From Solirubrobacter deserti (GTDB taxonomy: Bacteria > Actinomycetota > Thermoleophilia > Solirubrobacterales > Solirubrobacteraceae), in assembly GCF_027587175.1 (NCBI RefSeq), contig NZ_JAPCID010000017.1, positions 62,001 through 126,000 on the forward strand: a stretch of DNA of 64,000 nucleotides, read 5' to 3'. Shown piece after piece: positions 32,823 through 56,132 of the stretch. Each line of letters opens with the position of its first letter. Position 1 is the first letter of the stretch. The translations under genes and the position numbers were made by a program. Below the pieces are notes generated by a model that worked only from the letters and a program-made list of their open reading frames with translations, searched no databases and had not been told where the DNA came from.

Positions 32823-35800
32823 GTGGTAAGAGGGTTGGGTATCGGCGCGCCCGGACGGCGCGTCTTCCTGCTCGGCATGACGATGGCCCTGTTGCTGGGT
32901 CTCGTGCTGCCGGGCCTGGCCGCGGCACAGGGCGAAGGCAAGCGGATCATGCTCTACACGGGCACGACGGGCTTCCGCCACACCGACGGCATCAACGGCG
33001 GCGTCCCCACGCTGACGTCCAAGCTGCAGGCGCTGGGTTACACGGTCGACCGTGAGGACTGCGTCGACAACGGCGGGGCGACCGCCGTCGCGACGAACTG
33101 CGACCACGCCGACAAGAACCCGCGCATCTTCACGGACGCGAACCTCGCCCGGTATGACGCGGTCGTGTTCCTGAACATGTCGTGGTCGTGGGCGGGCGGC
33201 AACAAACCGGGCCCGCTGCTCGATGACGCGCAGAAGGCCGCGATCATCAAGTACACGCAGAACGGCGGCGGCATCGCGGCCATCCACAACGCCACCGACG
33301 CGGCCGCCGGCCGCTCGGCGTGGGACTGGTGGGACGGCGGCCCGAACTCGATGGTCGGCTCGACCATGCCGGGTCACTCCGCCAACAACATCGTCGCCAC
33401 CGTCCAGACGGCCGACAAGAACCACCTGTCCACGAAGGACCTGCCCGACACGTGGACGCTGTCGGACGAGCACTACAACTTCCTGCGCAACGTCCGCGGC
33501 ACGCACCACGTGCTCGCGACGTTCGACGAGCGCACCTACAACCCGGGCCCGAACGCCAAGGGCCAGGATCACCCGATCACGTGGTGCAAGCTCTACGACG
33601 GCCGCGGCATCAACGACGGCACGTCGACACCGAAGGACTACACCGACGGCCGCACGTGGGTCACCGGCATGGGCCACAACGGCGCCCGCTACACCGAGAA
33701 CGGTGGCGACGGCCCGATGGTCAAGATGATGCTCGGCGGCATCCGCTGGGTCGCCGGCGAGGGCAAGAAGACCGACTGCTCCGGCACGGTCTGGTCGAGC
33801 TTCCGCCGCACGGTCCTGGTCGCCAACGCGAACCAGCCGATCGGCATCGACATCGCGAAGGACGGCAAGGTCTACTGGACCGAGATGGGCCTGATCGGCA
33901 ACGCGAACAGCTCGTGGAACTCCGAGGGCTCGATCGTCATGCACGATCAGAAGGGCGCCCCCGGCAACAAGACCACGGTCGTCACGATCCCGACCCGCGC
34001 CGACCACGGCAACTCCGAGGACGGCGTGATGGGCTTCACGCTCCAGCCGGGCTTCGACCTCGCCGACCCGAACAAGCGGCACGTGTTCGCGTACTACTCG
34101 CCGCGCCCCCAGGTCGGTGACAACTGGCCGATGTCCAACGCGGACGCCCGCATCGCGGTCGGTTACAACGTCGTCTCCCGCTGGACGCTGACCGCGGACG
34201 GCAAGTCGGTCGAGCCCAACTCCGAGCGCATCATCCTCCGGGTCCCGAAGGCGAAGATCGGTGGCAACCCCGCCGGCTTCCCGGGCGGTCCGACGGACGG
34301 CGGCCCGGGCCACGTGGGTGGCGCCGGCCTCGACTTCGACTCCGAGGGCAACCTGTACCTCGGCGTCGGCGACGACGTGTCCCCGAACGCTCCGGGTCAC
34401 GACCGCTACATCCCGATGGACTACCGCGCCTCCGAGCGCTGGGACGCGCGCAAGACGTCGGCCAACACGGGCGACCTGCGCGGCAAGGTGCTGCGCATCA
34501 AGCCGTCGCTGGCCGACATCCCGTCGTCCGCGTCGCCGGGCGTCGACTCGACGTACTCCATCCCGGCGGGGAACCTGTTCCCGGTCGGCACGGAGAAGAC
34601 CCGTCCCGAGATCTACGCGATGGGCTTCCGTCAGCCGTTCACGCTCCACACCGACGCCAAGAACCCGGGCCTGATCGGCGTGGGCGAGTTCTGCCACGAC
34701 AACAACACCGACCGTGCGCAGCGCGCCCCGGCCGGCGTGTGCGAGTGGAACCTGGTCGGCAAGGCCCAGAACGCGGGTTGGCCGTTCTGCGTGGGCGACA
34801 ACTCGCCGGCGAACACCGCGTGGCGCTGGAAGTACACGGGCACGGCCGCGGCTCCGAGCACCGGCGTCCCGACGGGCGAGCAGTACGACTGCTCCAAGGA
34901 GCAGATCCCGTCCGACATCAACTGGGCGCCGGAGGGCGAGACCGCCGCTCCGCCGACGTTCCCGGGCCTGGACATGATTCCCAAGCCCGAGCCCGCCACG
35001 ATCTGGAAGAAGTACCCGACCGTGGGCAACCAGGGCATGCAGCGCGTCGCCGACTTCGGTGATCTGCAGGCCGGCGGCATGCAGCCGCTCGCCGGGCCGA
35101 TCTTCCGCTACAACTCGGCCACGGCCAGCAGCGGCGGCTTCCCGGCCTACTACGACGGCTCGTGGTTCATCAACAACCGCGGCTCGACGGACGGCTTCTG
35201 GAAGGAAGTCAAGCTCCGCAGCGACAACAACCAGATGCTGCGGGTCAACGACTGGCTCCCGTACAACCACGCGGGCAACGCCGCCAACCAGCTCAACGGC
35301 TTCGTCATCGGCACCCAGTTCGGCGACGACGGCGCGCTGTACATGGCCCGTTACCCGGTCGGCTGCTGCCGCACGGGCACCAGCGCCAACTCGCAGGTCC
35401 AGATCGTCAAGATCTCCTTCGAGGTCTACGACGAGACGACGGCGCCGGAGGTCACGGCGACCCTCGACCCGGCCACGCCGGGCGCGGGCCGCACCTACAC
35501 GGGCCCGGTCACGGTCAACTTCTCGGCGACCGACCCGGCCAACCCGGACCCGAGCCAGCCGCACGCCGGCATGGACTACATCGAGTACCGCCAGGTTCTC
35601 AACGGCGTCGCGGGCCAGTGGGTCCGCACCAGCGCGGGCAACCTGCAGGCCTCGCTGACGGCCGCGGGCACGTTCACCGAGCAGGGCTCGTACACGATCG
35701 AGTACCGCGCCGCCGACAAGGGCGGCAACATGGGCGCGGCCAAGTCCGTCTCCTTCTGGATCAACACCCCGGTCACGGCCGAGGGCACGGTCAAGGCGGC

Positions 35801-36197
35801 GGTCCCGGCTTCGCTCGGGCTCTCGATCGGTGAGATCCGGTTCGACCCGTTCGCCCCGGGCGTGACCGCGACCTACCAGGGCCGCGGCACCGCGACCGTG
35901 ACGAGCTCCTGGCCGGCCACGCGCCTCGCCGTCCATGACGCGAGCGCCACCAACACCGGCCGCCTGGTCAACGGCACGTCCGTGATCGGCCGCAACATGC
36001 AGGTCGCGGACTGGTTCGGCAACTACCAGGACGTCAGCAACGCCACCAACGCCCGCGTCGTCGCCCTCTGGTCGGCGCCGCTCGCGAGCGCCGCGGTGCC
36101 GCTCAACTTCCGTCAGTCGGTCCTGAACACGGACGCGCTGTCGGCGGGCGAGTACACCAAGACGCTCACGTTCACGCTGTCCAGCCCGACGCCGTAG
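32823..36197 (+). CDS. Secreted ThuA + glucose/sorbosone-dehydrogenase-like protein 1
   Basis: 1124 residues. GTG 32823 follows GGGGGAGGAG. The signal peptide ends near VLPGLAAAQG. Residues about 40-320 form a ThuA-like domain: RIMLYTGTTGFRHTDGING, NGGGIAAIHNATDA, SDEHYNFLRNVRGTHHVLA and QDHPITWCKLYDG. Residues about 338-865 form a GSDH-type beta-propeller: PIGIDIAKDGKVYWTE, GHVGGAGLDFDSEGNLYLGV and IYAMGFRQPFTLH. An Ig-like domain (about 875-985) follows, then the C-terminal domain shared with the two GH78 proteins. ThuA proteins are linked to 3-keto-disaccharide metabolism; GSDH-type propellers may use PQQ. Activity is not proven by the sequence. It lacks the LamG, cupredoxin and PKD parts of its two larger paralogues. 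Confidence 0.85.
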   Translation: MVRGLGIGAPGRRVFLLGMTMALLLGLVLPGLAAAQGEGKRIMLYTGTTGFRHTDGINGGVPTLTSKLQALGYTVDREDCVDNGGATAVATNCDHADKNPRIFTDANLARYDAVVFLNMSWSWAGGNKPGPLLDDAQKAAIIKYTQNGGGIAAIHNATDAAAGRSAWDWWDGGPNSMVGSTMPGHSANNIVATVQTADKNHLSTKDLPDTWTLSDEHYNFLRNVRGTHHVLATFDERTYNPGPNAKGQDHPITWCKLYDGRGINDGTSTPKDYTDGRTWVTGMGHNGARYTENGGDGPMVKMMLGGIRWVAGEGKKTDCSGTVWSSFRRTVLVANANQPIGIDIAKDGKVYWTEMGLIGNANSSWNSEGSIVMHDQKGAPGNKTTVVTIPTRADHGNSEDGVMGFTLQPGFDLADPNKRHVFAYYSPRPQVGDNWPMSNADARIAVGYNVVSRWTLTADGKSVEPNSERIILRVPKAKIGGNPAGFPGGPTDGGPGHVGGAGLDFDSEGNLYLGVGDDVSPNAPGHDRYIPMDYRASERWDARKTSANTGDLRGKVLRIKPSLADIPSSASPGVDSTYSIPAGNLFPVGTEKTRPEIYAMGFRQPFTLHTDAKNPGLIGVGEFCHDNNTDRAQRAPAGVCEWNLVGKAQNAGWPFCVGDNSPANTAWRWKYTGTAAAPSTGVPTGEQYDCSKEQIPSDINWAPEGETAAPPTFPGLDMIPKPEPATIWKKYPTVGNQGMQRVADFGDLQAGGMQPLAGPIFRYNSATASSGGFPAYYDGSWFINNRGSTDGFWKEVKLRSDNNQMLRVNDWLPYNHAGNAANQLNGFVIGTQFGDDGALYMARYPVGCCRTGTSANSQVQIVKISFEVYDETTAPEVTATLDPATPGAGRTYTGPVTVNFSATDPANPDPSQPHAGMDYIEYRQVLNGVAGQWVRTSAGNLQASLTAAGTFTEQGSYTIEYRAADKGGNMGAAKSVSFWINTPVTAEGTVKAAVPASLGLSIGEIRFDPFAPGVTATYQGRGTATVTSSWPATRLAVHDASATNTGRLVNGTSVIGRNMQVADWFGNYQDVSNATNARVVALWSAPLASAAVPLNFRQSVLNTDALSAGEYTKTLTFTLSSPTP

Positions 36198-36221
36198 TCG
36201 ACGTCGAGCTGATCTGAGACA

Positions 36222-36253
36222 AAGCGCGTCGCCACGGTCGTGGCGGCGCGCTT
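36222..36253. terminator. Hairpin between convergent ThuA gene 1 and cupredoxin operon
   Basis: aagcgcgtcgccac (36222-36235) pairs with gtggcggcgcgctt (36240-36253) with one mismatch and a 4-nt loop. It is placed between the convergent stops at 36197 and 36299. Confidence 0.75.
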
Positions 36254-36298
36254 CGTCGTTGAGGGGGCGTCCGCCGCGCCGGCGCCGCTCGGACTCAG

Positions 36299-37012
36299 CT
36301 AGCGGCGGACGGTGACGCGGGCGCGCGACGCGGCCTTGGCCGCGTTGCCCGCGAGGTCCTTCGCGCTGACCTGCACGCGGTAGCTGCCGGCCTTCAGGCC
36401 GCGCAGGCTGAGCGACCCGGTGCCCTTGGCGACCTCGACGGTGCGGGTCCTGACGACGCGCTTGCCGCGGGTGAGCTTGACCGTGACCTTGCCGGCCTCG
36501 GACAGGCGGAACCGCACGCGCACGCCGCGATCGACGCGGGTGGCCTTGACGCGGTCGAGGGTCGGGACGACGGTGTCGCGGACCTCGACGCTCGTGAGCG
36601 GCGGGGTGTCGTTGGCGAACGGCTGCTCGCTCAGGGGCGGCGGCGGAGGCGGAGGCGGTGGGGCGCCGGTCTCGTCGGAGACGAAGACGTCGCCGAACAT
36701 CGTGCTCTCGTGCAGGAAGCAGATGTAGCGGTAGGTGCCCGGCTGCTGGAAGGTGAAGGAGCGGTCAGGGCCGGCGACGGCGACCTCGGACTTGAACGTG
36801 TCCCACGCGGCGGGCGTCTTGCCCTGGACGTTGTGGGGCGTCGCGGTGCCGGCGAAGGACCAGGTGACGGTCTCACCGACCTTGATGCGGACCTCGGTCT
36901 GCGACCAGACGTTGGTGCCGTCGACGGCCTGGACCTTGACCTCGGCGACCGCGACCGCGGGAAACGCGAGGGCGGTGGCGGCAAGCGCCACGGCCGACAG
37001 CGGCGCGCGCAT
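36299..37012 (-). CDS. Secreted cupredoxin with C-terminal Ig-like domain
   Basis: 237 residues. The ATG at 37012 shares its A with the multicopper-oxidase stop (TGATG). The signal peptide ends near FPAVAVAE. Residues 25-115 are plastocyanin-like with copper ligands H60 (ATPHNVQG), C98, H101 and M105 (YICFLHESTMFG). A poly-proline linker follows, then an Ig-like domain (residues about 150-237: VRVRFRLSEAGKVTVKL, LSLRGLKAGSYRVQVSAKDL). A one-electron copper carrier outside the cell, probable partner of the coupled oxidase. Confidence 0.88.
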   Translation of the reverse strand: MRAPLSAVALAATALAFPAVAVAEVKVQAVDGTNVWSQTEVRIKVGETVTWSFAGTATPHNVQGKTPAAWDTFKSEVAVAGPDRSFTFQQPGTYRYICFLHESTMFGDVFVSDETGAPPPPPPPPPLSEQPFANDTPPLTSVEVRDTVVPTLDRVKATRVDRGVRVRFRLSEAGKVTVKLTRGKRVVRTRTVEVAKGTGSLSLRGLKAGSYRVQVSAKDLAGNAAKAASRARVTVRR

Positions 37013-38493
37013 CAGACGATCTCCATCTGCAGCATCATGGCCTTGTCGGCGTGCTCGAGCGCGTGGCAGTGGAACACGTACTTGCCCTTGTAGGGGGCGA
37101 ACCACGCGAGCACGGTGACCGTCTCGTTGGGCAGCACTCCGACGGTGTCCTTCCAGCCGAGCCGGTCGGCGAGCTCGACGGGCCCGCTGGTGCGCTCGAG
37201 CACGCGGAACAGGAACCCGTGCAGGTGCATCGGGTGCACGCGGCCTGAGTTGTTGACGAACGTCCAGACCTCGGTGCTGCCGAGCCGCGGCCGCACGTCG
37301 ATGCGGTTCGGGTCCCAGGACAGGCCGTTGATCTGCCAGGCGGCGCTGCCGAGGGCGAGGTCCCAGCGGCGGCGAACGGTCGGCGCGGGGAGCGGCTCGG
37401 GGTCGCGCAGGCGCGTGGGAACGCGGAAGTCCTCGCTGGCTTTCCCGCCCTGGATGTCGAAGCGCATGATCGGGGTGGTGCCGCCACCGGCTTCGGTGTC
37501 GACGTTGTAGAGGGTCAGCTCCTCCCCGGGCCCGTACTGGGAGAAGTCGATCACGACCTCGACGCGCTCAGCGGGGTGCAGCGGGATGTTGGTGCGCGGG
37601 ACGGGGCGCGAGAGCAGGCCGCCGTCGCCGGCGATCTGCACCATCGCGCGCGCGTTGCCCAGGCGCAGGGCGTAGGAGCGGGCGTTGGACGCGTTCAGGA
37701 AGCGCAGCCGGTACCGGCGGCGCTGCACGGCCATGCGCGGGGAGATCGCGCCGTTGACCAGCAGCGTGTCGCCGCGGAAGCCGATGTCGACGTTCTCGGC
37801 GTACCGGAACGAGCCGTCCTTGTTGAACGCGTGGTCGGCCAGCACGAGCGGGACGTCGAACTCGCCCTGCGGAAGCCCCAGCTCGGTCTCCAGCTCGTCC
37901 TCGAGCAGGTACATCGAGACCAGCCCGTAATAGAGCGTCTTGGACGTGCGGCCGTGCGCGTGGTCGTGGTACCAGAGCGTCGCCGCGTCCTGCTCGTTGG
38001 GGTAGTGGTAGTCGAACGAGCCGCCGGCCGCGATGACGTCCATCGGGTGCCCGTCGTGCGCGGCGGGCACGTAGCCGCCGTGCAGGTGCACGTTGGTGTC
38101 GAACGGCAGCGCGTTGGTCTGGCGGACGACGACCTCGCGCCCCTTCTTGGCCCGGATCAGCGGGCCGGGGTAGACGCCGTCGTAGCCGTAGATCGGCGTC
38201 TGGAACCCGGGCAGCACCTCGGCCAGGCCCTCGCGCACGGTCATCGCGTACGTGTCCCGCGTGCGCGTGCTGATGTTCGGCACCAGCTCCGGGATCCGCG
38301 GCAGGTCACGCTGGAACGGCGCGAACGGCGACTTGGCCTGCGAGCGGATCGCGGCCGAGGTCACCGTCGCCTTGCGCGGACGCAGCACGTCCGGCGCGGC
38401 GATCGTGCACAGCAGCGCGATCGAGCTGAAGCCGTTGACCATGAAGTCCCGACGCGAAGACCCGGCGTCGGCAGGCGCTCGAAACCCCGTCAT
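37012..38493 (-). CDS. Multicopper oxidase (CotA/laccase-like)
   Basis: 493 residues from the ATG at 38493 (TGATG with the upstream gene); a GTG 3 bp earlier is also possible. The N-terminus SSRRDFMVNGFSSIALL looks like a twin-arginine signal. All four copper motifs are present: NVHLHGG, LWYHDHAHGRTS, HPMHLHGFLF and HCHALEHADKAM. The last includes the type-1 Cys and an axial Met. Such oxidases take electrons from phenols, metals or cupredoxins and reduce oxygen to water. Translational coupling to cupredoxins on both sides suggests protein electron donors (inference). Confidence 0.92.
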   Translation of the reverse strand: MTGFRAPADAGSSRRDFMVNGFSSIALLCTIAAPDVLRPRKATVTSAAIRSQAKSPFAPFQRDLPRIPELVPNISTRTRDTYAMTVREGLAEVLPGFQTPIYGYDGVYPGPLIRAKKGREVVVRQTNALPFDTNVHLHGGYVPAAHDGHPMDVIAAGGSFDYHYPNEQDAATLWYHDHAHGRTSKTLYYGLVSMYLLEDELETELGLPQGEFDVPLVLADHAFNKDGSFRYAENVDIGFRGDTLLVNGAISPRMAVQRRRYRLRFLNASNARSYALRLGNARAMVQIAGDGGLLSRPVPRTNIPLHPAERVEVVIDFSQYGPGEELTLYNVDTEAGGGTTPIMRFDIQGGKASEDFRVPTRLRDPEPLPAPTVRRRWDLALGSAAWQINGLSWDPNRIDVRPRLGSTEVWTFVNNSGRVHPMHLHGFLFRVLERTSGPVELADRLGWKDTVGVLPNETVTVLAWFAPYKGKYVFHCHALEHADKAMMLQMEIV

Positions 38494-39398
38494 CACTTCA
38501 CCTTCAGCGTCGTCGTGCCCGCGAGGCTCTTGTTGGCCATCGCGTCGACGGCGCGGTACTCGATCGTGTACGTGCCCTTCGCGCGCAGGCTCTTGCTGCG
38601 CAGGACCACCGAGCGGGTGCCGAGGCCGACATGCAACGTCGCCGTCGTGAGCGTGCGCTTGGAGCCCTTGCGCCGCGCGCTGACCTGCAGCGTCGCGGGC
38701 TCGGAGATCCAGAAGTTGAGCTTGGCGCCCTCACGGACGGTCTTCGCGCGCAGCTGCTGGAAGCGCGGCGCGGTCGTGTCGGCCTTGGCGACCTTCCCGG
38801 GCGCCGGCGTGTTGAGGTGATCGTCCGGCGAGGCGGTCGCGCGGGGCGAGGGTGACGGCGTGGCCGAGAACGTCGGCGTCTCCTCCGGCTCCTCGGTCGG
38901 CGTCTCCTCGGGCTCCTCGGTCGGGGTCGGCTCGGGCGTCTCCACCGGCTCACCCTCGACCGTGATCGTGCCCACCATGGTCGGGTGGACGGAGCAGAAG
39001 AACTGGTACTCGCCCTCTTCGCCGAACGTCCACGACGTCGTCCCGCCCGCCTGGATGTCGGTGATGCCGTCCTTCTTCGGTCCCCGCTCGTTCCAGGCCT
39101 TGTTCGCGGGCGTCGAGCTCTTCGACGCCGCGTTGTGCGGCATGCCGTTCGCGTTCTTGAAGTTCCAGACGACCGTGTCGCCCGTGCGGATCGTCAGATC
39201 GGCGCGCTCACCGGTCTCACACGTCGTCTTCTCGGTGTTCGAGAAGCACTTGTCCTTGATGCCGTTCTCGACCGAGAAGATCGTGCGGTTCTCTCTCGCT
39301 CCGGCGACGCCGACGCCGCCGATGATCCCGGCGACCGCGAGTGCAGCGACCGCGGCAGCCATGCCAGGCCGGCGTAGCCGGCTCCGATCCGTCCTCAT
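38493..39398 (-). CDS. Secreted cupredoxin with linker and C-terminal Ig-like domain
   Basis: 301 residues. ATG 39398 was chosen because GAGGAG lies 9 bp upstream; a GTG two codons earlier is less well spaced. A signal peptide or membrane anchor (MAAAVAALAVAGIIGGVGVA) comes first. Cupredoxin ligands are H88 (GMPHNAAS), C135, H138 and M141 (FFCSVHPTM). A P-T-E-E repeat linker (about residues 150-190) follows, then an Ig-like domain (LNFWISEPATLQVSARRKG...LRAKGTYTIEYRAVDAMAN). First gene of the copper operon. Confidence 0.88.
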   Translation of the reverse strand: MRTDRSRLRRPGMAAAVAALAVAGIIGGVGVAGARENRTIFSVENGIKDKCFSNTEKTTCETGERADLTIRTGDTVVWNFKNANGMPHNAASKSSTPANKAWNERGPKKDGITDIQAGGTTSWTFGEEGEYQFFCSVHPTMVGTITVEGEPVETPEPTPTEEPEETPTEEPEETPTFSATPSPSPRATASPDDHLNTPAPGKVAKADTTAPRFQQLRAKTVREGAKLNFWISEPATLQVSARRKGSKRTLTTATLHVGLGTRSVVLRSKSLRAKGTYTIEYRAVDAMANKSLAGTTTLKVK

Positions 39399-39439
39399 TG
39401 ACACGTTCTCCTCAACGCTCCACGACCGAGAAACGAGGT

Positions 39440-39464
39440 TTCGGTCGATCGGTGACCGAAGCTA
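39440..39464 (-). promoter_or_regulatory. Possible -10 and operator of the copper operon
   Basis: On the minus strand TAGCTT (39464-39459) resembles a -10. ttcggtc/gaccgaa (39440-39446 and 39454-39460) form an inverted repeat over the expected start site, and a further partial copy (cgaccga) lies at 39423-39429. No clear -35 was seen, so an activator may be needed. Confidence 0.45.
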
Positions 39465-39539
39465 GCACGGTTCTGCACAACGATCGAGCAAACCCACCAT
39501 TCCTCGACGAAAGTGTGAGGACCCAGCGTTCAGAAGTCA

Positions 39540-39568
39540 TTGTCATCACCGCGCGTGCTTGCTAGCTT
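39540..39568 (+). promoter_or_regulatory. Leaderless promoter of the small I78-like gene
   Basis: TTGTCA (39540-39545), a 17-bp spacer and TAGCTT (39563-39568). The GTG start codon at 39576 lies 8 bp after the -10, fitting a leaderless mRNA. Confidence 0.65.
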
Positions 39569-39575
39569 CGGACCC

Positions 39576-39971: not shown

Positions 39972-39974
39972 CCG

Positions 39975-48200: not shown

Positions 48201-49964
48201 GCGTTCCCGGACCCGAACGAGGGTCGCTGGATCGGCATGGTCGGCACGGCCACGGTGACGGCGGCTCCGGCGGGCGAGCAGCCCTCCGGTGTCGACTACA
48301 CCGAGTACCGCGTCAAGACGGGCGAGACGCAGGGCGACTGGGTCAGGGCCAACAACACCGGCACGGCGAACCCGTTCGCCTCGCAGGTCACGGTCGAGGC
48401 CGAAGGCCAGCACACGGTCGAGTTCCGCTCGGTCGACAAGGCGGGCAACGCCGAGACGGCCAAGTCGGTCGCGTTCGGCATCGACATCCCCGAGCCCGGC
48501 ACGCCGGTGATCGAGGCGTTCGCCGATCCGACCTCGGGCAAGGCCCCGCTCGTGTCCCGCTTCTCCGCCTCGGGCTATGACCCCGACGGCGGCGAGCTGA
48601 GCTACAAGTGGGAGTTCACCGACGGCCCGACGGTCCTGGGCCCGATCGTGACCCGCACGTTCACGCAGGCGGGCACGTACACGGTCAAGGTCACCGCCAC
48701 CGACGACGAGGGCGACAAGAGCTCGAAGGAGCTCACCGTCACCGTCAGCGGCACGGGCGGCAACCCGCCGACGGTCGACGCCACGGCCGACCGCACCACC
48801 GCGGTCGCGCCGGCGCTGGTCGCGTTCACGGCCACGGGCACGGGCGAAGGCCTGCGCTACTCGTGGGAGTTCGGTGACGGCGAGCGCTCGGTGAACCCGA
48901 CGCCGGAGCACGTCTACCTGGAGCCGGGCGACTACACCGCCCGCGTCACGGTGACCGACAAGTACGGCGCCACCGCCACGAAGACCGTGACCATCAAGAT
49001 CACGGCCCCGGCGGCCAACCTGGCGCCGGCGTGGACGACGGACGGCACCCCGGTGGGCCATGTCGGCTTCAACGGCGACCCGATGCAGGTGCAGTTCACG
49101 GCCGAAGCCAAGGACCCCAACAAGGACACGGTCAGCTACGAGTGGGACTTCGACGACGACTCCGCCAAGTCGACCAAGCAGTCCCCGGTGCACACCTACA
49201 CCCAGCCGGGCACGTACGACGTGACGGTCAAGGTCACCGACGGCAAGGGCGGCGAGCTCACCAAGACCATCCAGGTCACGGTCGCGCGCAAGGCCAACAC
49301 GCTGCCCGAGGTCACGATCGAGGCCGATCCGAAGCAGGGCCCCGGCCCGCTGACGGTGCGCTTCAGCTCGCAGATCAGCGACGCTGACGGCGACGGCTGG
49401 AAGTCCGCGTGGAACTTCGGCGACGGCTCCGGCTCCGCCGAGGACCACCCGACGCACGTCTACAACGCGCCGGGCGTCTACACGGCGACGCTGACGATCA
49501 CGGACGCGCAGGGCGGCGTGACCACCAAGTCGGTCCAGATCACGGTCACGGCGGTCCAGGGTGGCGGCACGCAGTCCGCGCCCAAGACCAACGCGGCCGC
49601 CCCGGCGCCCGAGCAGGCGGCGTGGTTCGGCGTCGGCGAGCCGGTCAGGACCTCGGTCAGCGCCTTCGCCAAGAGCGGCCTGTCGGTCAAGGTCACGGCC
49701 ACGGAGGCGATGAGCGGCACCGCCAAGCTCGTCGTCACCAAGAAGGTCGCCAAGGCCCTCGGCCTGAAGTCGACCACGCTCGCGAGCGCGAAGGTGTCCT
49801 TCACGGGCGCCGGCAGCAAGGCCGTGAAGTTCACGGCGAGCAAGGCCGTCAAGCGGGCCCTGGCCAAGGCCAAGGGCTCCGTGAAGGTCACCCTCTCCGT
49901 GAGCCTGAAGGCCAGCGGCGAGGCGGCGAAGAACTCGTCGCGCTCGGTGACGCTGACGAAGTAG
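42261..49964 (+). CDS. Giant secreted ThuA/GSDH protein 2 with nested cupredoxin and PKD domains
   Basis: 2567 residues. ATG 42261 follows GGAGGAGGAG and the signal peptide ends near LPALAGAQE. Domains in order: ThuA-like (about 40-320; VLLYTGTTGFRHTDAIDNG, DEHYNFRRNVRGSHHV); GSDH beta-propeller (335-853); two Ig-like (853-1046); LamG-like (1054-1297, starting SDEFDGSALSSQW); Ig-like; second LamG-like (1410-1654, SDEFDGTEILPRW); two Ig-like. Next is an Ig-like domain split by a cupredoxin (about 1899-2002) with ligands H1935, C1977, H1980 and M1993. Four PKD domains follow (2082-2432), then a C-terminal domain of about 115 residues shared only with the next protein. No sortase signal. Probably a surface or secreted carbohydrate-binding oxidoreductase; the catalytic role is inferred from family. 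Confidence 0.87.
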   Translation: MIHRGHLGVPGRRAVLWCATLAALLATMLLPALAGAQESKRVLLYTGTTGFRHTDAIDNGRQPVQNAIQAAGYTVDWENCVGNGGAANNCDNPDKNPRIFTDENLAKYDAIVLLNSSAGPPGPLWSDAQKAAIIKYVQNGGGIAGVHNATDMGTTVETWDWWDGNNGNSVVGATMRGHAITDRNNVGQIQVADKNHLATRDLPDTYGFGDEHYNFRRNVRGSHHVLTTIDESTYTPGGNGMGQDHPLTWCKLYDGDAINDNTTIPGSNPPQPNLKAYNDGRTWVTSMGHFGASYTENGGNNNLIKTIVGGVRWVAGEGKKSDCAGTVWSSYTREVVVADANNPIGIDVAKDGKVYWSEIGNPIGMESTGYIKMHDPTKPANNKTTVASIPTRADHGNSEDGVLGMALQPGFDLSDPNKRHLFVYYSPRNAAWPTSGNAMVVGYNQISRFTLTEDGTAVVPGSERKILEVPKAKISGSPAGFPGGPSDSGPGHVGGAGMDFDSAGNLYLGIGDDVSPNAGGHDRYAPMDFRAKERWDARKTSQNSADLRGKIIRIAPKLGDIPVDATPGVDTTYGIPTGNLFPVGTAKARPEIYAMGFRQPFTLHTDPKNPGIVGTGEYCHDNGTPNATRSPAGTCEWNLLNKAGNHGWPLCVGDNSAANSMFKWNYATSTSTGERYDCNGSTVSSDIRWAPTGQTPVEPTFDGLDTLPGPVEKATVWKNYPGTQPAAFGNLASGGMQPVAGPIYRYDAATAGQGAFPAYYDGSWFINNRGDSGFWKEVKMRADNNQMLRVQDWLPWNGGVNPNNANSGFVIGTQFGPDGNLYMARYSVGCCRSETNAAQQNQIVKISFNVQDECLTDTNAPNTSATVTGQAYPDRPNTYVNSAKLRLAATDSGCAGVKNIEYREVGASEWQPYSNEVTFEEGKTYNIEFRATDRKDNVATVKTTTFEILKINDTTAPVVTAATAGNKDQRDFFVGSATLTLTATDNEVGGSGVQTVEYRTNGGAWTAYTAPVAFNAAGNYTVDYRATDKVNNTSEVKSATFRILAGAGCTPGRSDEFDGSALSSQWLRHTRNGGTPETGAFAPTLANGKLTLPTHNFELDSNSTTTAVGPVNFIGQDLASLGTNWTVETQLTVQFTGGWQHTGLIVHNGDNNFFRATITHDLNQGRSFVEQSKDNPSSTEGARVQAGGSVGIVTDQSQPVTIRMRYMRVDGSNTVQAHYRVIAPASAANPDWVAFPGAATFNDLNPTSGARRDAAGSRIGIIAGGNFPGTAGTHPYNGTPANVVVDYFRVSPDPVTCETAAPVTTATLDPAAPATGDTYDRAVKVNFSAADSGASASGVEKTEYRLITNGVAGQWTTKENSGSENPFANQLTVSSSGTNVVEFRSTDKAANTEETKSVTFKVQLPVCDRSDEFDGTEILPRWIRHTRNGGTPTTGPLAPTVSDGQLHLPTNDLEIDNSTNPTSFGPINFLGQDLPSLGTDWSVETQFTAQYRGGWQNIGLAVWNGDNNFIRSTLTHSLSNSSIYVESSKDNPAASNGTPSPEGVRATAGGNRNILATNTGPVTIKMRFRRVDGANTIQAHYQVVAPASAANADWVAFPGNASFWDLNPANGPRRDATGSRIGLIAQDNWPAGGTFPSNGQPAIAHVDYFRVTPDNCPTGADTTAPTTTATAAPAAPNGSAGWYTSDVNVTLAGNDGANGSGIERTEYKVNGGAFAPYTAPIALTTTGTHTIEFRSIDKNNNTEATKTATYKVDKAAPTSTATLQPATTPSTGPVTLTLAGEDQAAGSGLAKLEFQVNNASVFGALTASAEWVTYDAANKPTFSAPGLYSVDYRATDAAGNVEAAKTIAFTITAPNNDKTAPVTSQSLDPAQPGAGKTYSGPVTVKFSALDPLPAGPAGKTVAVTAAGDRWAPDAISLVSGDTVRWDFPADGHFPHDVWLVAPGGDWANPTKESEWVNPGGPSVTKTLNTVGTYTFICKVHAFPDPNEGRWIGMVGTATVTAAPAGEQPSGVDYTEYRVKTGETQGDWVRANNTGTANPFASQVTVEAEGQHTVEFRSVDKAGNAETAKSVAFGIDIPEPGTPVIEAFADPTSGKAPLVSRFSASGYDPDGGELSYKWEFTDGPTVLGPIVTRTFTQAGTYTVKVTATDDEGDKSSKELTVTVSGTGGNPPTVDATADRTTAVAPALVAFTATGTGEGLRYSWEFGDGERSVNPTPEHVYLEPGDYTARVTVTDKYGATATKTVTIKITAPAANLAPAWTTDGTPVGHVGFNGDPMQVQFTAEAKDPNKDTVSYEWDFDDDSAKSTKQSPVHTYTQPGTYDVTVKVTDGKGGELTKTIQVTVARKANTLPEVTIEADPKQGPGPLTVRFSSQISDADGDGWKSAWNFGDGSGSAEDHPTHVYNAPGVYTATLTITDAQGGVTTKSVQITVTAVQGGGTQSAPKTNAAAPAPEQAAWFGVGEPVRTSVSAFAKSGLSVKVTATEAMSGTAKLVVTKKVAKALGLKSTTLASAKVSFTGAGSKAVKFTASKAVKRALAKAKGSVKVTLSVSLKASGEAAKNSSRSVTLTK

Positions 49965-49990
49965 CAAGACCGCAGTGCCCGAGTGATCAC

Positions 49991-50023
49991 AAGGCGGCCG
50001 CCCCTGGTCAGGGCGGCCGCCTT
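49991..50023 (+). terminator. Perfect 13-bp hairpin between the two giant genes
   Basis: aaggcggccgccc (49991-50003) pairs exactly with gggcggccgcctt (50011-50023), with a 7-nt loop, 27 bp after the stop. No obvious promoter hexamers were found between it and the next start, so some read-through is possible. Confidence 0.75.
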
Positions 50024-50072
50024 CGGGCGTCTCAGACCATCAGCACCACAGGCGTTGTGCGAGGGGAGAGGG

Positions 50073-53000
50073 ATGGCACGGAAGTGGATCGGGCTGGTCG
50101 TAGCGCTGCTGACGCTGGGAGCGATGGCTCCAGCGGCGGCGTCGGCGCAGGACACGGCCAAAGTCCTCATCTATTCGGGGACGACGGGCTACAGACACGC
50201 CGGAAGCAGCGAGGCGATCCAGCCCGCGGTGGTGGAGCTGATCCAGGCCAAGCTGCAGGCCGCCGGCGTCGCGAGCGACTACCGCACCTGCAGCGGGCAC
50301 GGCACCGGGAGCGGGACACTGCCCGGCTGCCGCAACACGACCGTCGGCAACCCGGCCATCTTCACCCCCGCGAACCTCGCGCAGTACGACGCGATCTTCT
50401 TCTGGCAGGCGTCGTCGCTGAACCGCGGCGACACGACCAGCCCGCAGCTGTTCACGGTGCCCGAACAGCAGGCGATCGAGGCCTTCGCCCGCGCGGGCGG
50501 CGGCATCGCCGCGATGCACGCCTCGGTGACCATGGGCGCCGGCGCGGTCACGTGGCCGTGGTGGGACGGGCCGGGTGACAGCGCGATCGGCGCGCTGATG
50601 CCGGGCCACTCGGCGACCGACTCCAGCAACATCGCGACCGTCGAGGTCTCCGACCGCCACCACCCGTCGACCAAGGACCTGCCCGACTCCTACCGCTTCG
50701 GCGACGAGCACTACACGTTCTCCTCCAACGTGCGCGGCACGCACCACGTGCTGATGACGCTCGACGAGGAGAGCTACAACGTCGGCAACGGCGTCACCCG
50801 CATGGGCGCGGACCACCCGATCGCGTGGTGCCGCATGTACGAGGGCGCGCGCATCTGGTCCTCGAGCCTCGGCCACTTCTCCGCCGCCTACCTCGAGAAC
50901 GGCGGCGACAACAACCTGCTCAAGCACCTGGTCGGCGGCGTGCGCTACGTCGCGGGCCTGGCGGGCAAGGACTCCGACTGCGGCGCCACGGTGTGGACGA
51001 ACTTCTCGCGCACCGTGCTCGCCGACGACCTGCGCGGCGCGATCGGCATGGACATCGCGCGCGACGGCAAGGTCTACTGGACCGAGATCGGCAACCAGGC
51101 GATCAACTCCGAGGGCCGGCTGCGGATGTGGAACCCGCAGACCAAGGCGACGAGCACGCTGCTGACGCTGCCCACGCGCGCCGACCACGAGTCCTCCAAC
51201 GACGGCGTGCTGGGCATGGCGCTCGACCCCGACTTCGCCACCAACCGGCGCCTGTACATCTACTACTCGCCGCGCCAGGACCCGGGCTGCAACAGCTGCC
51301 TCGTGGTCGGCCACAACGTGATCAGCCGCTTCACGCTCAACGCGGAGGGCACCGGCGTGGTGGCGGGCTCCGAGCAGGAGATCCTGCGGGTCCCCAAGGT
51401 CAAGGTCGGCAACGACAACGAGGACGGCATCGCCGGCCAGAACACCTACAGCGCGCACGTCGGCGGCGGCAGCCTGAGCTTCGACTCGGAGGGCAACCTC
51501 TACATCGGCACGGGCGACGACGTCGACCCGTTCGGCGCGGGTGGAAACGGCTACGCGCCGATGGACCAGCGCTACCCCGAGCGCTACGACGCGCGCAACA
51601 CGTCGGCCAACACGAACGACCTGCGCGGCAAGATCCTGCGCGTCAAGCCGCTCGCGAACGCGGCCGGCGCCGCGGGCGCGGGCACGACGTACGCCATCCC
51701 GGCGGGCAACATGTTCCCGGTTGGGACGGCCAAGACCAAGCCCGAGATCTTCGCCATGGGCTTCCGCAACCCGTTCACGGTCGCGGCCGACCCGGCGCAC
51801 CCGGGCACGGTCGTGGTCGGCGACTACGGCCCGGACGCGGCGACCAACAGCACCACGCGCGGCCCGGCCGGGATCATCGAGTGGAACCGCGTCACCAAGC
51901 CCGGCTTCTACGGCTGGCCGTTGTGCGCGGGCGACAACTCGACCGCGAACACCTACAACCGCTACACGTTCCCGAACGGGCCGAGCGGCGAGCGCTTCAA
52001 CTGCGGCGCCGCGACGATCCCGAACGAGTCGCCCAACCAGAGCGGCCTGACCGAGCTCCCCGGGCCGGCGATCGGCGCCGACGTCTGGCACAAGCGCACG
52101 GGCGACCACCCGGCGCGCTTCGGCATCCCCGCGCGGACGAGCCCGCAGGAGTCGATCACGGGCCCGATCTACAAGTACGACGCGTCCAACCCGTCCGACA
52201 CTAAGTGGCCGGCGTACTTCGACGGCGCGTGGCTGATGCTCGACCGCGCCCAGAACTGGTGGCGTGAGGCGCGCGTGCGCGACAACGGCTCGAGCCTGCT
52301 GCGCGTGAACGGCCTGTTCGGCTCCAGCCAGTTCGGCTCCCCTAGCCACTCGTATCCGATCCCGGTCAAGTTCGGCCCGGACGGCTCGCTGTACCTGGCG
52401 ACTTGGGACCACGACTGCTGCCGCGCCCAGCTGCCGTCCAGCCAGCCGGGCCGCCTGATGCGGATCGACTTCATCGGCGACCAGGTCGACACGACTGCGC
52501 CGGTGCTCACTCCGACGCTCACGGGCGGTCAGAACCCGAGCGGCGCCTACCTGGGCCGCGCGACGCTCACGCTCAACGCGACCGACCAGTCCGGCATCTC
52601 CCGCATCGAGTACTCGCTGGACGGGACGGAGTGGACGCGCTACACGGCGCCGGTCGGCTTCACCGACCGCGGTTCCTACACCGTGCGCGTACGGGCGGTG
52701 GACCGGGCGAACAACACGTCCGAGGTCCAGCAGGTCACCTTCACGGTGGTCGCGGGTGCGGCCTGCACGCCGGCACGCTCGGACGAGTTCGACGGCACGC
52801 TCAACACGACGCTGTGGAGCTACCGCCACGCGACGACGCCGGCCACCGGCACGCGCGCGCCGAGCGTCTCCGGCGGCAACCTCGTGCTGCCGCTCGGCGC
52901 GTTCTCGGTGGACCTCACCCGGCCGGGCCCGATCGGCTTCCTCGGCCAGCCGCTCCCGACCGGGGACTTCACGATGGTCGCGAAGCTCTCCGCGCCGGGC

Positions 53001-56000
53001 CTGAACGCCGACAACAGCGGCGAGGGCAGCAAGTACGCCCAGGCGGGCGTGAAGATCTTCCAGGGCAACGACAACTGGATCAAGCTCGCGCACAACCGCA
53101 ACGCGGACGGCAACCCGACCGGCGCGGCGGGCACGTACTTCGAGCTCTCGCAGGAGGTCAACGGCACCCGGACGCTCGGGACCCGGACCGGCCTCGGCAC
53201 CGGCAACCTGCCGACGTGGTGGGTGCGGCTCGTGCGGACCGGCGATCAGGTCGCGGGCGCCTACTCGCTGACCGACCCGGAGAGCGCCGGCGGCGCGAAC
53301 TGGGTCGCGCTCGGCAGCGCGAACCTCAACACGGTGCTCCCCGAGGCCGGCGGGCCGCGCTACATCGGCGTCTACGGCGGCAACGGCTCCGTGAACCTGT
53401 CCGCGGACTACGTGCGCTTCACGCCGGACTCGCCGAAGGACCTCGCGCCGCCGGTGAGCTCGCACACGGTCCCGGCGGCCGACGGCCTCGAGGGCTGGCA
53501 CCGCACGCCGGTCAACGTGACCGTCTCGGCGGCCGACGACGGCGAGTGCGTCTCGGGCATCGACACGACCGAGTACCGCGTCGGCGGCGGCGCGTTCGCG
53601 GCCTACACGGCCCCGATCGCGCTCACGGCGGACGGCACGCACACGGTCGAGTACCGCTCCACCGACAAGGCCGGCAACGCGGAGACGGCGAAGTCGGTCA
53701 CGGTCAAGCTCGACGCCACGGCGCCGGCGACCACGGCGTCGACGAACCCGACCGGCGCCGGACCGCATCCCGCTCCGGTCACGCTGACGCTGGACGCGGC
53801 CGACGCCGCCTCCGGCGTCAAGCTCACCGAGTACCGCGTCAACCATGGCGGCGCGTTCGCCGGCGTGGCCCCCAAGGCGCTGTCGGCCGCGGCGGACTGG
53901 CTGCCCTACAGCGCGGCCGGCAAGCCCGCGTTCACGGCCAACGGGACCTACTCGATCGAGTACCGCTCGACGGACGTCGCCGGCAACGTCGAGGCGACCA
54001 AGACCGTGACGTTCACGGTCGGCACGCCCACGGGCGACGCGACCGCGCCGGTCACGAGCGCCGCGCTCGATCCGGCGTCGCCCGGCCCCGGCCGGGTCTA
54101 CCCGGGCCCGGTCACGGTCAAGTTCTCGGCGCTCGACCTCGCGCCGGCGGAGAACAAGAACGTCGACGCCAACGGCACCGTGTGGACGCCGGCGGCGATC
54201 AGCCTCAACGCGGGTGACACGGTCACCTGGCGCTTCGGCGCGACCGCGGGCAGCGCGCACGACGTGTGGCTCGTCCCGCCGGGCGGCAACCCGTCCCCGG
54301 ACGGTCCGGACATCATCAAGGCGTCCGAGATCGTGTTCCCGGGTGGGGCGCCGGTCACCCGGGCGCTGACACAGACCGGCACCTGGCGGTTCATCTGCCG
54401 CCTGCACGCCGGGTTCACCGACGGCGCCTGGACCGGCATGGTCGGCACGGCGACGGTCGGCGCGGGCGCCGGCAGCGGCGTCGACTTCACCGAGTACCGC
54501 GTCAACGGCGGCGCGTGGACGAGGGCGGCCAACACGGCCGGCGCGAGCCCGTTCGCGTCGCAGGCGCTCGTGTCCGCCGAGGGCGAGCACACGGTCGAGT
54601 TCCGCTCCGGCGACAAGGCCGGCAACCTGGAGGCGGCCAAGTCGATCGCGTTCGGCATCGACGTGCCGGATCCGGGCTTCCCGCAGATCGAGGCGTTCGC
54701 CGACCCGAACGTGGGTGCGGCGCCGCTGCCGGTGCGCTTCTCGGCGTCCGGCTTCGATCCCGACGGCAGCGCGCTGAGCTACCGCTGGCAGTTCCCGGGC
54801 GGCGCCACCGTGCACGGCCGGACCGTCGAGCGCACGTTCACCCAGCCGGGCACGTACACGGTGAAGGTCACGGCGACCGACGCGCAGGACGAGCAGACCT
54901 CCCGCGAGGTCACGGTCTCGGTCACCGCGCCGGGCGTGCTGCCGCCGACGGTGGAGGCCACCTCCAGCGTCACGGGCGGCGCGGCGCGGCTTCCGGTCAC
55001 CTTCACGGCGACCGGCGCCGACCCCGACGGGGACCCGGCGCAGCTCAAGTACGCGTGGGACTTCGGGGACGGCGGCAAGTCGCTGAACCCGAACCCGACC
55101 CACGTGTACGGCGCGCCGGGCGTGTTCGACGCGACCGTGACGGTCACCGACCCGAGCGGGGCCACGGCCACCAAGACGATCAAGATCACGGTGACCGACG
55201 CCCCGGGCAACGGCGCGCCGACCGTCGAGGAGGCGTACGGCGCGGCCGGGTTCGACGGTGACCCGATGGCGGTGCAGTTCAGCGCCCGCGCGACCGATCC
55301 GGATGGCGACAAGCTCACGCTCGAGTGGGACTTCGACGACGGGACGGCGAAGGGCTCCGGCACGTCGGTCAAGCACACCTACACGACGCCGGGCACCTAC
55401 GACGCGACGGTCACGGCTTCCGACGGCACGCGCACGTCGCAGGCGTTCACCGTGCGCGTGACGGTGGCGCGCGGTGCCAACCGGTTGCCGCAGGTCACCA
55501 TCGAGGCCGATCCGACCACGGGTCCCGGCCCGCTCACGGTCCGCTTCAGCTCGGACGTGGTCGAGCCGGACGGCGAGGGCTACAGCCGCGCGTGGGCGTT
55601 CGGTGACGGCGGGAACTCGGCCGAGGCGCACCCTGCGCATGAGTACAAGGCCGCGGGCACCTACACGGCGACGCTGACGGTCACCGACGAGCGCGGTGGC
55701 GTCACGACGAAGTCGGTCCAGGTGACGGTCACGGCGGTCCAGGCCGCCCCGCCGGCGGCGCCGAAGACCGCCGACGCGGCGCCCGCGCCCGAGCCGGCGC
55801 CGTGGTTCGGCGTCAGCGAGCCGGTGCGGACGTCCGTGAGCGGCTTCGCCAAGCGCGGGCTCGCGGTGCGCGTCACCTGCACGCAGGCGATGCGCGGCAC
55901 GGCGAAGCTGACCTTGGCTGCGTCGATGGCCAAGCGGCTGGGCCTCAAGCGCACGACGCTCGCCTCCGCGCCGGTGAAGTGCGCCGGCGCCGGCAGCCAG

Positions 56001-56132
56001 ATCGTCACGCTCAGGCCGTCGGCGGCCACCCGGCGCGCGCTCGGCAAGGCCAAGGGCGCCGTCAAGCTCAAGCTCGGCGTGTCCCTGTCGGGCCGGCAGG
56101 CCTCGCGGACAGTCACGCTGACGCGCGGCTAG
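50073..56132 (+). CDS. Giant secreted ThuA/GSDH protein 3 with nested cupredoxin and PKD domains
   Basis: 2019 residues. ATG 50073 follows GAGGGGAGAGGG; the signal peptide ends near APAAASAQD. ThuA-like (about 28-310: VLIYSGTTGYRHAGSSEAI, GDEHYTFSSNVRGTHHVLM, SLGHFSAAYLENGG); GSDH propeller (about 320-820: AIGMDIARDGKVYWTEIG, IFAMGFRNPFTV); Ig-like; one LamG-like (897-1118, ARSDEFDGTLNTTLW); two Ig-like. Then an Ig-like domain split by a cupredoxin with H1396, C1442, H1445 and M1456; four PKD domains (1537-1890); and the C-terminal domain shared with the preceding protein. It is a diverged paralogue of protein 2 with one LamG-like domain fewer. Predicted surface sugar-oxidising protein; substrate unknown. 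Confidence 0.87.
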   Translation: MARKWIGLVVALLTLGAMAPAAASAQDTAKVLIYSGTTGYRHAGSSEAIQPAVVELIQAKLQAAGVASDYRTCSGHGTGSGTLPGCRNTTVGNPAIFTPANLAQYDAIFFWQASSLNRGDTTSPQLFTVPEQQAIEAFARAGGGIAAMHASVTMGAGAVTWPWWDGPGDSAIGALMPGHSATDSSNIATVEVSDRHHPSTKDLPDSYRFGDEHYTFSSNVRGTHHVLMTLDEESYNVGNGVTRMGADHPIAWCRMYEGARIWSSSLGHFSAAYLENGGDNNLLKHLVGGVRYVAGLAGKDSDCGATVWTNFSRTVLADDLRGAIGMDIARDGKVYWTEIGNQAINSEGRLRMWNPQTKATSTLLTLPTRADHESSNDGVLGMALDPDFATNRRLYIYYSPRQDPGCNSCLVVGHNVISRFTLNAEGTGVVAGSEQEILRVPKVKVGNDNEDGIAGQNTYSAHVGGGSLSFDSEGNLYIGTGDDVDPFGAGGNGYAPMDQRYPERYDARNTSANTNDLRGKILRVKPLANAAGAAGAGTTYAIPAGNMFPVGTAKTKPEIFAMGFRNPFTVAADPAHPGTVVVGDYGPDAATNSTTRGPAGIIEWNRVTKPGFYGWPLCAGDNSTANTYNRYTFPNGPSGERFNCGAATIPNESPNQSGLTELPGPAIGADVWHKRTGDHPARFGIPARTSPQESITGPIYKYDASNPSDTKWPAYFDGAWLMLDRAQNWWREARVRDNGSSLLRVNGLFGSSQFGSPSHSYPIPVKFGPDGSLYLATWDHDCCRAQLPSSQPGRLMRIDFIGDQVDTTAPVLTPTLTGGQNPSGAYLGRATLTLNATDQSGISRIEYSLDGTEWTRYTAPVGFTDRGSYTVRVRAVDRANNTSEVQQVTFTVVAGAACTPARSDEFDGTLNTTLWSYRHATTPATGTRAPSVSGGNLVLPLGAFSVDLTRPGPIGFLGQPLPTGDFTMVAKLSAPGLNADNSGEGSKYAQAGVKIFQGNDNWIKLAHNRNADGNPTGAAGTYFELSQEVNGTRTLGTRTGLGTGNLPTWWVRLVRTGDQVAGAYSLTDPESAGGANWVALGSANLNTVLPEAGGPRYIGVYGGNGSVNLSADYVRFTPDSPKDLAPPVSSHTVPAADGLEGWHRTPVNVTVSAADDGECVSGIDTTEYRVGGGAFAAYTAPIALTADGTHTVEYRSTDKAGNAETAKSVTVKLDATAPATTASTNPTGAGPHPAPVTLTLDAADAASGVKLTEYRVNHGGAFAGVAPKALSAAADWLPYSAAGKPAFTANGTYSIEYRSTDVAGNVEATKTVTFTVGTPTGDATAPVTSAALDPASPGPGRVYPGPVTVKFSALDLAPAENKNVDANGTVWTPAAISLNAGDTVTWRFGATAGSAHDVWLVPPGGNPSPDGPDIIKASEIVFPGGAPVTRALTQTGTWRFICRLHAGFTDGAWTGMVGTATVGAGAGSGVDFTEYRVNGGAWTRAANTAGASPFASQALVSAEGEHTVEFRSGDKAGNLEAAKSIAFGIDVPDPGFPQIEAFADPNVGAAPLPVRFSASGFDPDGSALSYRWQFPGGATVHGRTVERTFTQPGTYTVKVTATDAQDEQTSREVTVSVTAPGVLPPTVEATSSVTGGAARLPVTFTATGADPDGDPAQLKYAWDFGDGGKSLNPNPTHVYGAPGVFDATVTVTDPSGATATKTIKITVTDAPGNGAPTVEEAYGAAGFDGDPMAVQFSARATDPDGDKLTLEWDFDDGTAKGSGTSVKHTYTTPGTYDATVTASDGTRTSQAFTVRVTVARGANRLPQVTIEADPTTGPGPLTVRFSSDVVEPDGEGYSRAWAFGDGGNSAEAHPAHEYKAAGTYTATLTVTDERGGVTTKSVQVTVTAVQAAPPAAPKTADAAPAPEPAPWFGVSEPVRTSVSGFAKRGLAVRVTCTQAMRGTAKLTLAASMAKRLGLKRTTLASAPVKCAGAGSQIVTLRPSAATRRALGKAKGAVKLKLGVSLSGRQASRTVTLTRG

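What the first reader, a model, noticed from the sequence alone, without database searches (positions are those of the whole stretch)
32823..56132. Candidate extracellular copper-wired sugar-oxidation system
Seen: three secreted ThuA + GSDH-propeller proteins lie within 24 kb. Two carry a complete copper-ligand set (H, C, H, M) in an embedded cupredoxin. Between them is a translationally coupled cupredoxin / multicopper oxidase / cupredoxin operon. Known: GSDH-type propellers are sugar dehydrogenases that often use PQQ; cupredoxins carry single electrons; multicopper oxidases reduce oxygen. Inference: electrons from sugar oxidation pass through the tethered cupredoxins and soluble cupredoxins to the oxidase. 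I know of no described system of this make-up.
Basis: partly seen in the sequence, partly recalled or inferred. Interest (0 to 1): 0.88.

Follow-up and report, generated by a model that had tools for sequence, protein, structure and literature searches.

The report
Copper-protein sugar-oxidation gene cassette in Solirubrobacter
Soil bacteria of the genus Solirubrobacter keep very large secreted sugar-dehydrogenase-like proteins together with copper electron carriers and a copper oxidase, which points to an undescribed outside-the-cell electron route to oxygen, but the sugar-oxidising step is unproven and looks damaged in some copies.

Summary
Three ThuA-GSDH proteins, two with a complete type 1 copper ligand set, flank a translationally coupled cupredoxin/multicopper-oxidase/cupredoxin operon. 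The linkage is stronger than one window shows. In six Solirubrobacter genomes, all 17 loci of this oxidase clade carry a ThuA-GSDH gene nearby and a cupredoxin gene beside the oxidase; 0 of 68 homologues outside the genus do. In four loci ThuA-GSDH, triple cupredoxin, oxidase and cupredoxin form one coupled operon. Haloarchaea fuse the same propeller family to cupredoxin, and Runella fuses it to cytochrome c. A 3-keto-sugar-type uptake operon adjoins the locus and is syntenic in relatives. The chemistry is the weak part. The catalytic His and Arg of soluble glucose dehydrogenase are kept here, but the PQQ-carboxylate anchors are not. Five of six genomes, including this one, lack PqqC and a true PqqE. 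Four type C loci have lost both His and Arg. One relative has the two giant proteins without the adjacent oxidase. Functional linkage is very likely, copper wiring to the oxidase probable, PQQ-dependent sugar oxidation open. It is a new variant of quinoprotein-to-cupredoxin electron transfer; no description was found in the open-access literature searched.

The parts
32823..36197 (+). P1: secreted ThuA-GSDH protein, 1124 aa, no cupredoxin; C-terminal domain shared with the CUP-Ig giant of the type C locus
   Evidence: GSDH motifs GHVGG (His144 eq.) and FRQP (Arg228 eq.).
36299..37012 (-). Cupredoxin A, secreted, 237 aa, ligands PHN / CFLH / M
   Evidence: Copper-bind 39.4 bits; start overlaps oxidase stop by 1 base.
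37012..38496 (-). Three-domain multicopper oxidase with a twin-Arg-like signal (SSRRDFM), laccase/CueO/bilirubin-oxidase type
   Evidence: HLH, HDH, HPMHLH, HCH..EH....M invariant in 17.
38493..39404 (-). Cupredoxin B, secreted, 303 aa, ligands PHN / CSVH / M, C-terminal Ig-like part
   Evidence: 46 bits; stop overlaps oxidase start.
39540..39971 (+). Small protein with N-terminal hydrophobic anchor; syntenic partner of the MMPL gene
   Evidence: no Pfam hit.
39975..42092 (+). MMPL (RND-superfamily) membrane transporter; also inside type C loci L036, L040 and beside type B L030
   Evidence: (384 bits).
42261..49964 (+). P2: secreted ThuA-GSDH giant, 2567 aa, with Ig/OmpL47 repeats, ConA-like domains, inserted cupredoxin, PKD repeats
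47946..48275 (+). Cupredoxin inserted in an Ig-like repeat of P2 (H, C, H, M)
49983..56132 (+). P3: secreted ThuA-GSDH giant, 2049 aa, inserted cupredoxin, PKD repeats
   Evidence: GSDH model matches soluble glucose dehydrogenase.
54147..54482 (+). Cupredoxin inserted in an Ig-like repeat of P3
23272..24501 (-). ROK-family regulator at the left end of the sugar operon
25920..27026 (+). Gfo/Idh/MocA dehydrogenase, nearest curated model levoglucosan (3-)dehydrogenase, below its cut-off
27019..30553 (+). Sugar ABC transporter: ATPase and two permeases
30445..31803 (+). Periplasmic-type sugar-binding lipoprotein (true start lies inside this ORF)
   Evidence: sequence with lipoprotein-type signal and conservation in L049-L051; also in L174.
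31814..32659 (+). Xylose-isomerase-like TIM barrel (sugar epimerase/eliminase type), 164 bp before P1

Best explanation
A secreted sugar-oxidation module in which copper proteins carry the electrons. Very large ThuA-GSDH proteins, held on or near the cell surface by Ig/PKD repeats, bind and oxidise a sugar or glycoside at the six-bladed propeller. Electrons leave singly through the cupredoxin tethered in the same chain and through soluble cupredoxins A and B to the type 1 copper of the multicopper oxidase, which reduces oxygen. The oxidised sugar is imported by the adjacent ABC transporter and handled by the Gfo/Idh/MocA dehydrogenase and TIM-barrel epimerase/eliminase. Shown: the parts, their copper ligands, the operon coupling, the genus-wide linkage and the sugar-operon synteny. 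Inferred: all electron flow, its direction, the substrate and the cofactor (PQQ, which would have to be scavenged from neighbours, or another quinone-like cofactor).
For: 17 of 17 oxidase loci in six genomes have ThuA-GSDH and cupredoxin neighbours; 12 of 12 Solirubrobacter against 0 of 68 others. Type C loci L037, L038, L039, L041: ThuA-GSDH / 3x cupredoxin / oxidase / cupredoxin joined by -4 to 0 base overlaps; L035: ThuA-GSDH-cupredoxin fusion 61 bp before the oxidase. Propeller family fused to cupredoxin in Haladaptatus (two proteins) and Halocatena and to cytochrome c in Runella; Halocatena's lies beside a sugar ABC transporter and a Gfo/Idh/MocA gene. His144 and Arg228 equivalents conserved in the window proteins and in most relatives; model of P3 GSDH best matches PQQ glucose dehydrogenase. 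Sugar uptake operon syntenic in S. taibaiensis, S. phytolaccae, S. soli and G012. No AA10 LPMO in the genus as an alternative acceptor.
Against: No PqqC, and no PqqE over the cut-off, in five of six genomes including this one. Lys377, Arg406 and Arg408 equivalents absent; Asn229 is Gln in P1 and P2. His to Arg and Arg to Ser in four type C loci that still keep cupredoxins and oxidase. G012 keeps P2 and P3 but lacks both P1 and the cupredoxin/oxidase operon at this locus, though it has type B and C oxidases. The fold search also hits HHIP, a non-catalytic member of the fold. The oxidase clade has a single origin, so the loci are not independent trials.
Confidence: 0.42

Rival explanations
1. 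A surface phenol/metal-oxidising system: the oxidase acts on aromatic compounds or metal ions as a laccase, the cupredoxins feed or collect its electrons or supply copper, and the ThuA-GSDH propeller is a carbohydrate-binding scaffold without redox activity that holds the system on plant polymer or the cell wall.
For: Closest solved relatives of the oxidase are bilirubin oxidase, CotA laccase and CueO. Propeller active site lost in four type C loci while the copper parts stay. PQQ synthesis absent in five genomes. HHIP shows the fold can be non-catalytic. Lignin carbon enters Solirubrobacteraceae in SIP work, with two-domain small laccases of another type (PMC9296663).
Against: His and Arg are kept in the window proteins and most of the family; the propeller is repeatedly fused to one-electron carriers in distant taxa, which a mere binding scaffold would not need; a sugar uptake operon adjoins the locus.
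Confidence: 0.28
2. Copper homeostasis: cupredoxins buffer extracellular copper, the oxidase is a CueO-like Cu(I) oxidase, MMPL is an exporter, and the ThuA-GSDH genes are bystanders.
For: CueO is the best NCBIfam match of the oxidase, below its cut-off; an MMPL gene is present in type A loci and in L030, L036 and L040.
Against: No CopA, CopZ or copper sensor was found among the genes scanned at the locus. ThuA-GSDH is coupled or fused to the copper genes. In G012 MMPL stays with P2 where the cupredoxin/oxidase operon is absent. The cupredoxins carry type 1 ligand sets typical of electron carriers.
Confidence: 0.1
3. Reverse coupling: the oxidase makes quinones or radicals from phenols, and the ThuA-GSDH dehydrogenase reduces them again with sugar electrons, as proposed for fungal cellobiose dehydrogenase and laccase.
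For: Same parts as the best explanation; quinoprotein dehydrogenases often reduce quinones (general knowledge, not tested here).
Against: Does not need the conserved cupredoxin genes and their tight coupling to the oxidase.
Confidence: 0.1
4. Coincidental neighbourhood in a genome rich in ThuA-GSDH genes.
For: At least 23 ThuA matches per genome in five of six genomes of the genus (capped).
Against: Roughly 7% chance per locus of a ThuA-GSDH gene within 8 kb, against 17 of 17 seen; overlapping genes and a fusion; absence beside all 68 homologues outside the genus. The loci share one origin, so the product of probabilities is not to be taken literally.
Confidence: 0.02

Closest known systems
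Methylamine dehydrogenase / amicyanin (quinoprotein beta-propeller to cupredoxin)
   Same: A quinoprotein propeller dehydrogenase hands single electrons to a type 1 copper protein; the solved complex 1mda is among the fold matches of the inserted cupredoxin.
   Different: There the propeller is seven-bladed with built-in TTQ, acts on amines, the cupredoxin is a separate protein, and electrons go to cytochrome c (general knowledge). Here the propeller is GSDH type, the cupredoxin is also tethered, and the neighbour is a multicopper oxidase.
Soluble PQQ glucose dehydrogenase / aldose sugar dehydrogenase and AA12 pyranose dehydrogenase (CcPDH with AA8 cytochrome b)
   Same: Fold and the catalytic His and Arg (PMC6881810, PMC6881789); CcPDH also tethers an electron-carrier domain.
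   Different: PQQ-carboxylate anchors differ; fused to ThuA; the carrier is a cupredoxin; most hosts here cannot make PQQ.
CotA / CueO / bilirubin-oxidase type three-domain multicopper oxidases
   Same: Sequence, all copper ligands, secretion.
   Different: Always set beside cupredoxin genes and near ThuA-GSDH genes, which none of the 68 homologues outside the genus shows.
Levoglucosan-type 3-keto-sugar operons (lgdA/B/C; PMC7676230, PMC10066097)
   Same: ROK regulator, Gfo/Idh/MocA dehydrogenase, PF01261 TIM barrel, sugar ABC transporter.
   Different: Dehydrogenase and barrel are far below the curated cut-offs; secreted copper proteins are not reported in the passages read.

Membership tests
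PQQ-dependent soluble glucose dehydrogenase (sGDH/GSDH) | Six-bladed GSDH propeller | tested here: met
   Foldseek best hits 8re0, 1cru, 1c9u, E about 1e-15; model pLDDT 66, pTM 0.77.
PQQ-dependent soluble glucose dehydrogenase (sGDH/GSDH) | Catalytic base His144 and Arg228 | tested here: met
   H and R in P1, P2, P3; lost in type C L037, L038, L039, L041.
PQQ-dependent soluble glucose dehydrogenase (sGDH/GSDH) | PQQ-carboxylate anchors Lys377, Arg406, Arg408 | tested here: not met
   No equivalent basic residue aligned; but AA12 enzymes also lack Lys377 (PMC6881789).
PQQ-dependent soluble glucose dehydrogenase (sGDH/GSDH) | Binds PQQ and oxidises sugar | not testable with these tools
   PQQ synthesis genes absent in host; apo-enzymes loaded from outside are known in general (own knowledge).
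Type 1 cupredoxin (plastocyanin/amicyanin/halocyanin type) | His, Cys, His, Met ligand set in a cupredoxin fold | tested here: met
   57 of 64 domains complete; H70, C112, H115, M128 invariant; fold match plastocyanin.
Three-domain multicopper oxidase | Type 1, 2 and 3 copper ligands | tested here: met
   Invariant in 17 sequences; Cu-oxidase, Cu-oxidase_2, Cu-oxidase_3.
CueO copper-efflux oxidase | Curated NCBIfam cut-off for CueO | tested here: not met
   293 bits against cut-off 525.
Methylamine dehydrogenase/amicyanin system | TTQ-bearing seven-bladed heavy/light chain dehydrogenase | tested here: not met
   The dehydrogenase-like domain is a GSDH propeller; it may work like this system but is not a member.
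Levoglucosan (lgd) pathway | LgdA at the curated cut-off | tested here: not met
   173.8 bits against 650.

The most novel reading that the evidence does not exclude
A self-contained extracellular respiratory chain made only of copper proteins: sugar-oxidising ThuA-GSDH giants with built-in cupredoxin wires deliver electrons through further cupredoxins to a multicopper oxidase that acts as terminal oxygen reductase outside the membrane, possibly with a cofactor other than PQQ.
Probability: 0.3. Interest if true: 0.85.

Novelty: new variant of a known kind. Interest (0 to 1): 0.64.

Why it matters
If right, bacteria have a route by which sugars are oxidised outside the cell and the electrons pass through covalently tethered copper proteins to a laccase-type enzyme. 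It would give a physiological electron donor to a class of 'laccase-like' oxidases of unknown purpose, name a role for the abundant ThuA-GSDH giants of this genus, and offer ready-made dehydrogenase-cupredoxin fusions for bioelectrodes. The same propeller fused to cupredoxin in haloarchaea and to cytochrome c in Runella suggests a general design.

Tried and rejected
LPMO (AA10) as electron acceptor: none in the genus. PQQ made by the host: rejected for five of six genomes. Literature searches for ThuA with sorbosone dehydrogenase, ThuA domain with PQQ-dependent in Actinobacteria, Solirubrobacter with ThuA, and sugar dehydrogenase with cupredoxin, oxidase and PQQ gave no papers; the ThuA/trehalose 3-keto paper looked for by DOI is not held. 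A first regular expression undercounted cupredoxin ligands and was corrected. Treating the 17 loci as independent was rejected after the tree showed one origin of the oxidase clade (quick tree only). The Pfam GSDH score of P1 is below the cut-off, but 69% identity to P2 over ThuA-GSDH settles its family.
Full report
WHAT IS THERE. The window lies in a 7.55 Mb genome (C378:62009-126008) of the genus Solirubrobacter: the nearest oxidase homologues, 75-89% identical, come from S. taibaiensis, S. phytolaccae, S. soli and Ca. S. pratensis. The operon overlaps are TGATG at both joints. The oxidase has every type 1, 2 and 3 copper ligand. The cupredoxins of P2 and P3 are inserted in the loop of an Ig/OmpL47-type repeat; the modelled insert is plastocyanin-like (pLDDT above 90 across most of it).

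LINKAGE. I searched 120 genomes of the family for the oxidase and for ThuA, fetched up to 20 kb around each strong hit, and scanned for the parts. The oxidase exists in three forms in the genus, A (75-100% identity to the window's), B (64-67%) and C (51-54%), 17 loci in six genomes. All 17 carry a ThuA-GSDH gene within about 8 kb and a cupredoxin gene beside the oxidase. More distant oxidases in the same family (48% or less; L042-L045) have neither. An independent scan of 84,980 species genomes gave 12 Solirubrobacter loci, all with the parts, and 68 loci from other bacteria (Micromonospora, Streptomyces, Parafrankia and others), none with ThuA, cupredoxin or convincing GSDH within 10 kb. The oxidase tree makes the Solirubrobacter set one clade, SH-aLRT 98 (quick tree), so the association arose once and was kept through duplication; the chance estimate of about 7% per locus must not be multiplied over 17 loci.

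OPERONS AND FUSIONS. In type C loci L037, L038, L039 and L041 the order is ThuA-GSDH, a protein with three cupredoxin domains, oxidase, cupredoxin, on one strand, with gene overlaps of -4 to 0 bases. In L036 and L040 an MMPL gene stands between ThuA-GSDH and the cupredoxin gene. In L035 a ThuA-GSDH protein that itself carries a cupredoxin ends 61 bases before the oxidase, taking the place of cupredoxin B. These arrangements make an accidental neighbourhood untenable.

WHO ELSE FUSES THE PROPELLER TO A CARRIER. Haladaptatus has ThuA-GSDH-malectin-cupredoxin and a GSDH-cupredoxin protein side by side, and Halocatena has a cupredoxin-GSDH protein between a sugar ABC transporter and a Gfo/Idh/MocA gene. 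Runella has GSDH-PKD-cytochrome c-CBM6. Other members (Nonomuraea, Embleya, Paenibacillus, Natronococcus) showed no carrier domain. Replacement of cytochrome c by cupredoxin at the same partner is what one expects if the propeller passes single electrons to it. The sample is small.

THE PROPELLER. The P3 domain folds like soluble PQQ glucose dehydrogenase. Aligned to that enzyme, whose sequence was verified against the PDB, His144 and Arg228, the catalytic pair (PMC6881810), are kept in P1, P2 and P3; Asn229 is kept in P3 and is Gln in P1 and P2; Lys377, Arg406 and Arg408 are not kept. AA12 enzymes also lack Lys377 and use PQQ (PMC6881789), so this is not decisive. In type C, L037, L038, L039 and L041 have Arg for His and Ser for Arg, whereas L036 and L040 keep both. 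In G012 and G047 the next gene upstream of the degenerate one is another ThuA-GSDH-cupredoxin giant that keeps both. PqqC and a PqqE over the cut-off were found only in Ca. S. pratensis. PQQ dependence therefore needs scavenged cofactor, or the cofactor is another one, or the propeller is not a dehydrogenase.

A NATURAL COUNTER-EXAMPLE. In G012 the syntenic block runs sugar operon, small protein, MMPL, P2, P3, with P1 and the whole cupredoxin/oxidase operon missing. P2 and P3 can therefore exist without the adjacent oxidase, though that genome has type B and C oxidase loci elsewhere. In S. phytolaccae P1 is missing here but the oxidase operon stays beside the sugar operon.

MECHANISM. I commit to extracellular sugar oxidation with copper-protein electron transfer to the oxidase at 0.42. 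The judgement behind this figure: functional linkage of the parts about 0.9; electrons exchanged between cupredoxins and oxidase about 0.65; the propeller as the sugar-oxidising electron source about 0.45; PQQ as its cofactor about 0.3. These part-figures are estimates, not calculations. The closest working analogue is methylamine dehydrogenase to amicyanin, a propeller quinoprotein feeding a cupredoxin. The sugar side fits 3-keto-sugar catabolism, since the neighbouring genes have the make-up of levoglucosan operons, but none reaches a curated cut-off, so the sugar is unknown. The chief rival is a laccase-like system for phenols or metals with the propeller as a scaffold.

NOVELTY. No paper in the open-access library described this combination; subscription journals are mostly not covered. 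The parts are known kinds; the combination, the tethering inside an Ig repeat and the operon with an oxidase are new to my knowledge.

Noticed in passing
39540-42092: Small anchored protein and MMPL transporter stay with P2 in every type A locus, even where the cupredoxin/oxidase operon is absent (L174); MMPL also sits inside type C loci L036 and L040 and beside type B L030. Role unknown.
   Followed up: partly
L037:7751-9784 and equivalents in L038, L039, L040, L041: Triple-cupredoxin protein whose first domain has lost the Cys and Met ligands in five genomes while domains 2 and 3 keep all.
   Followed up: partly
L180:12496-18195: Secreted protein with two N-terminal cupredoxins and many Ig-like repeats upstream of the type C operon; its C-terminal domain recurs at the end of P1.
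   Followed up: partly
G071:C1:106515-108506 (L046, L048): PqqE and PqqC occur only in Ca. Solirubrobacter pratensis among six genomes of the genus.
   Followed up: yes
whole genus: At least 23 ThuA domains per genome in five of six Solirubrobacter genomes (the listing is capped at 23), many in proteins of 1400-3000 aa; an unexplained expansion.
   Followed up: no
NZ_CP096020.1 (L186) and NZ_CP085305.1 (L172): Haloarchaeal plasmids carry cupredoxin-GSDH and ThuA-GSDH-cupredoxin fusions; in L186 next to a sugar transporter and a Gfo/Idh/MocA gene.
   Followed up: partly
57886-60905: A cupin gene (57886-59076) and a second Gfo/Idh/MocA gene (59742-60905) to the right of P3.
   Followed up: no
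18418-20181: Protein with cadherin-like and RTX calcium-binding repeats.
   Followed up: no
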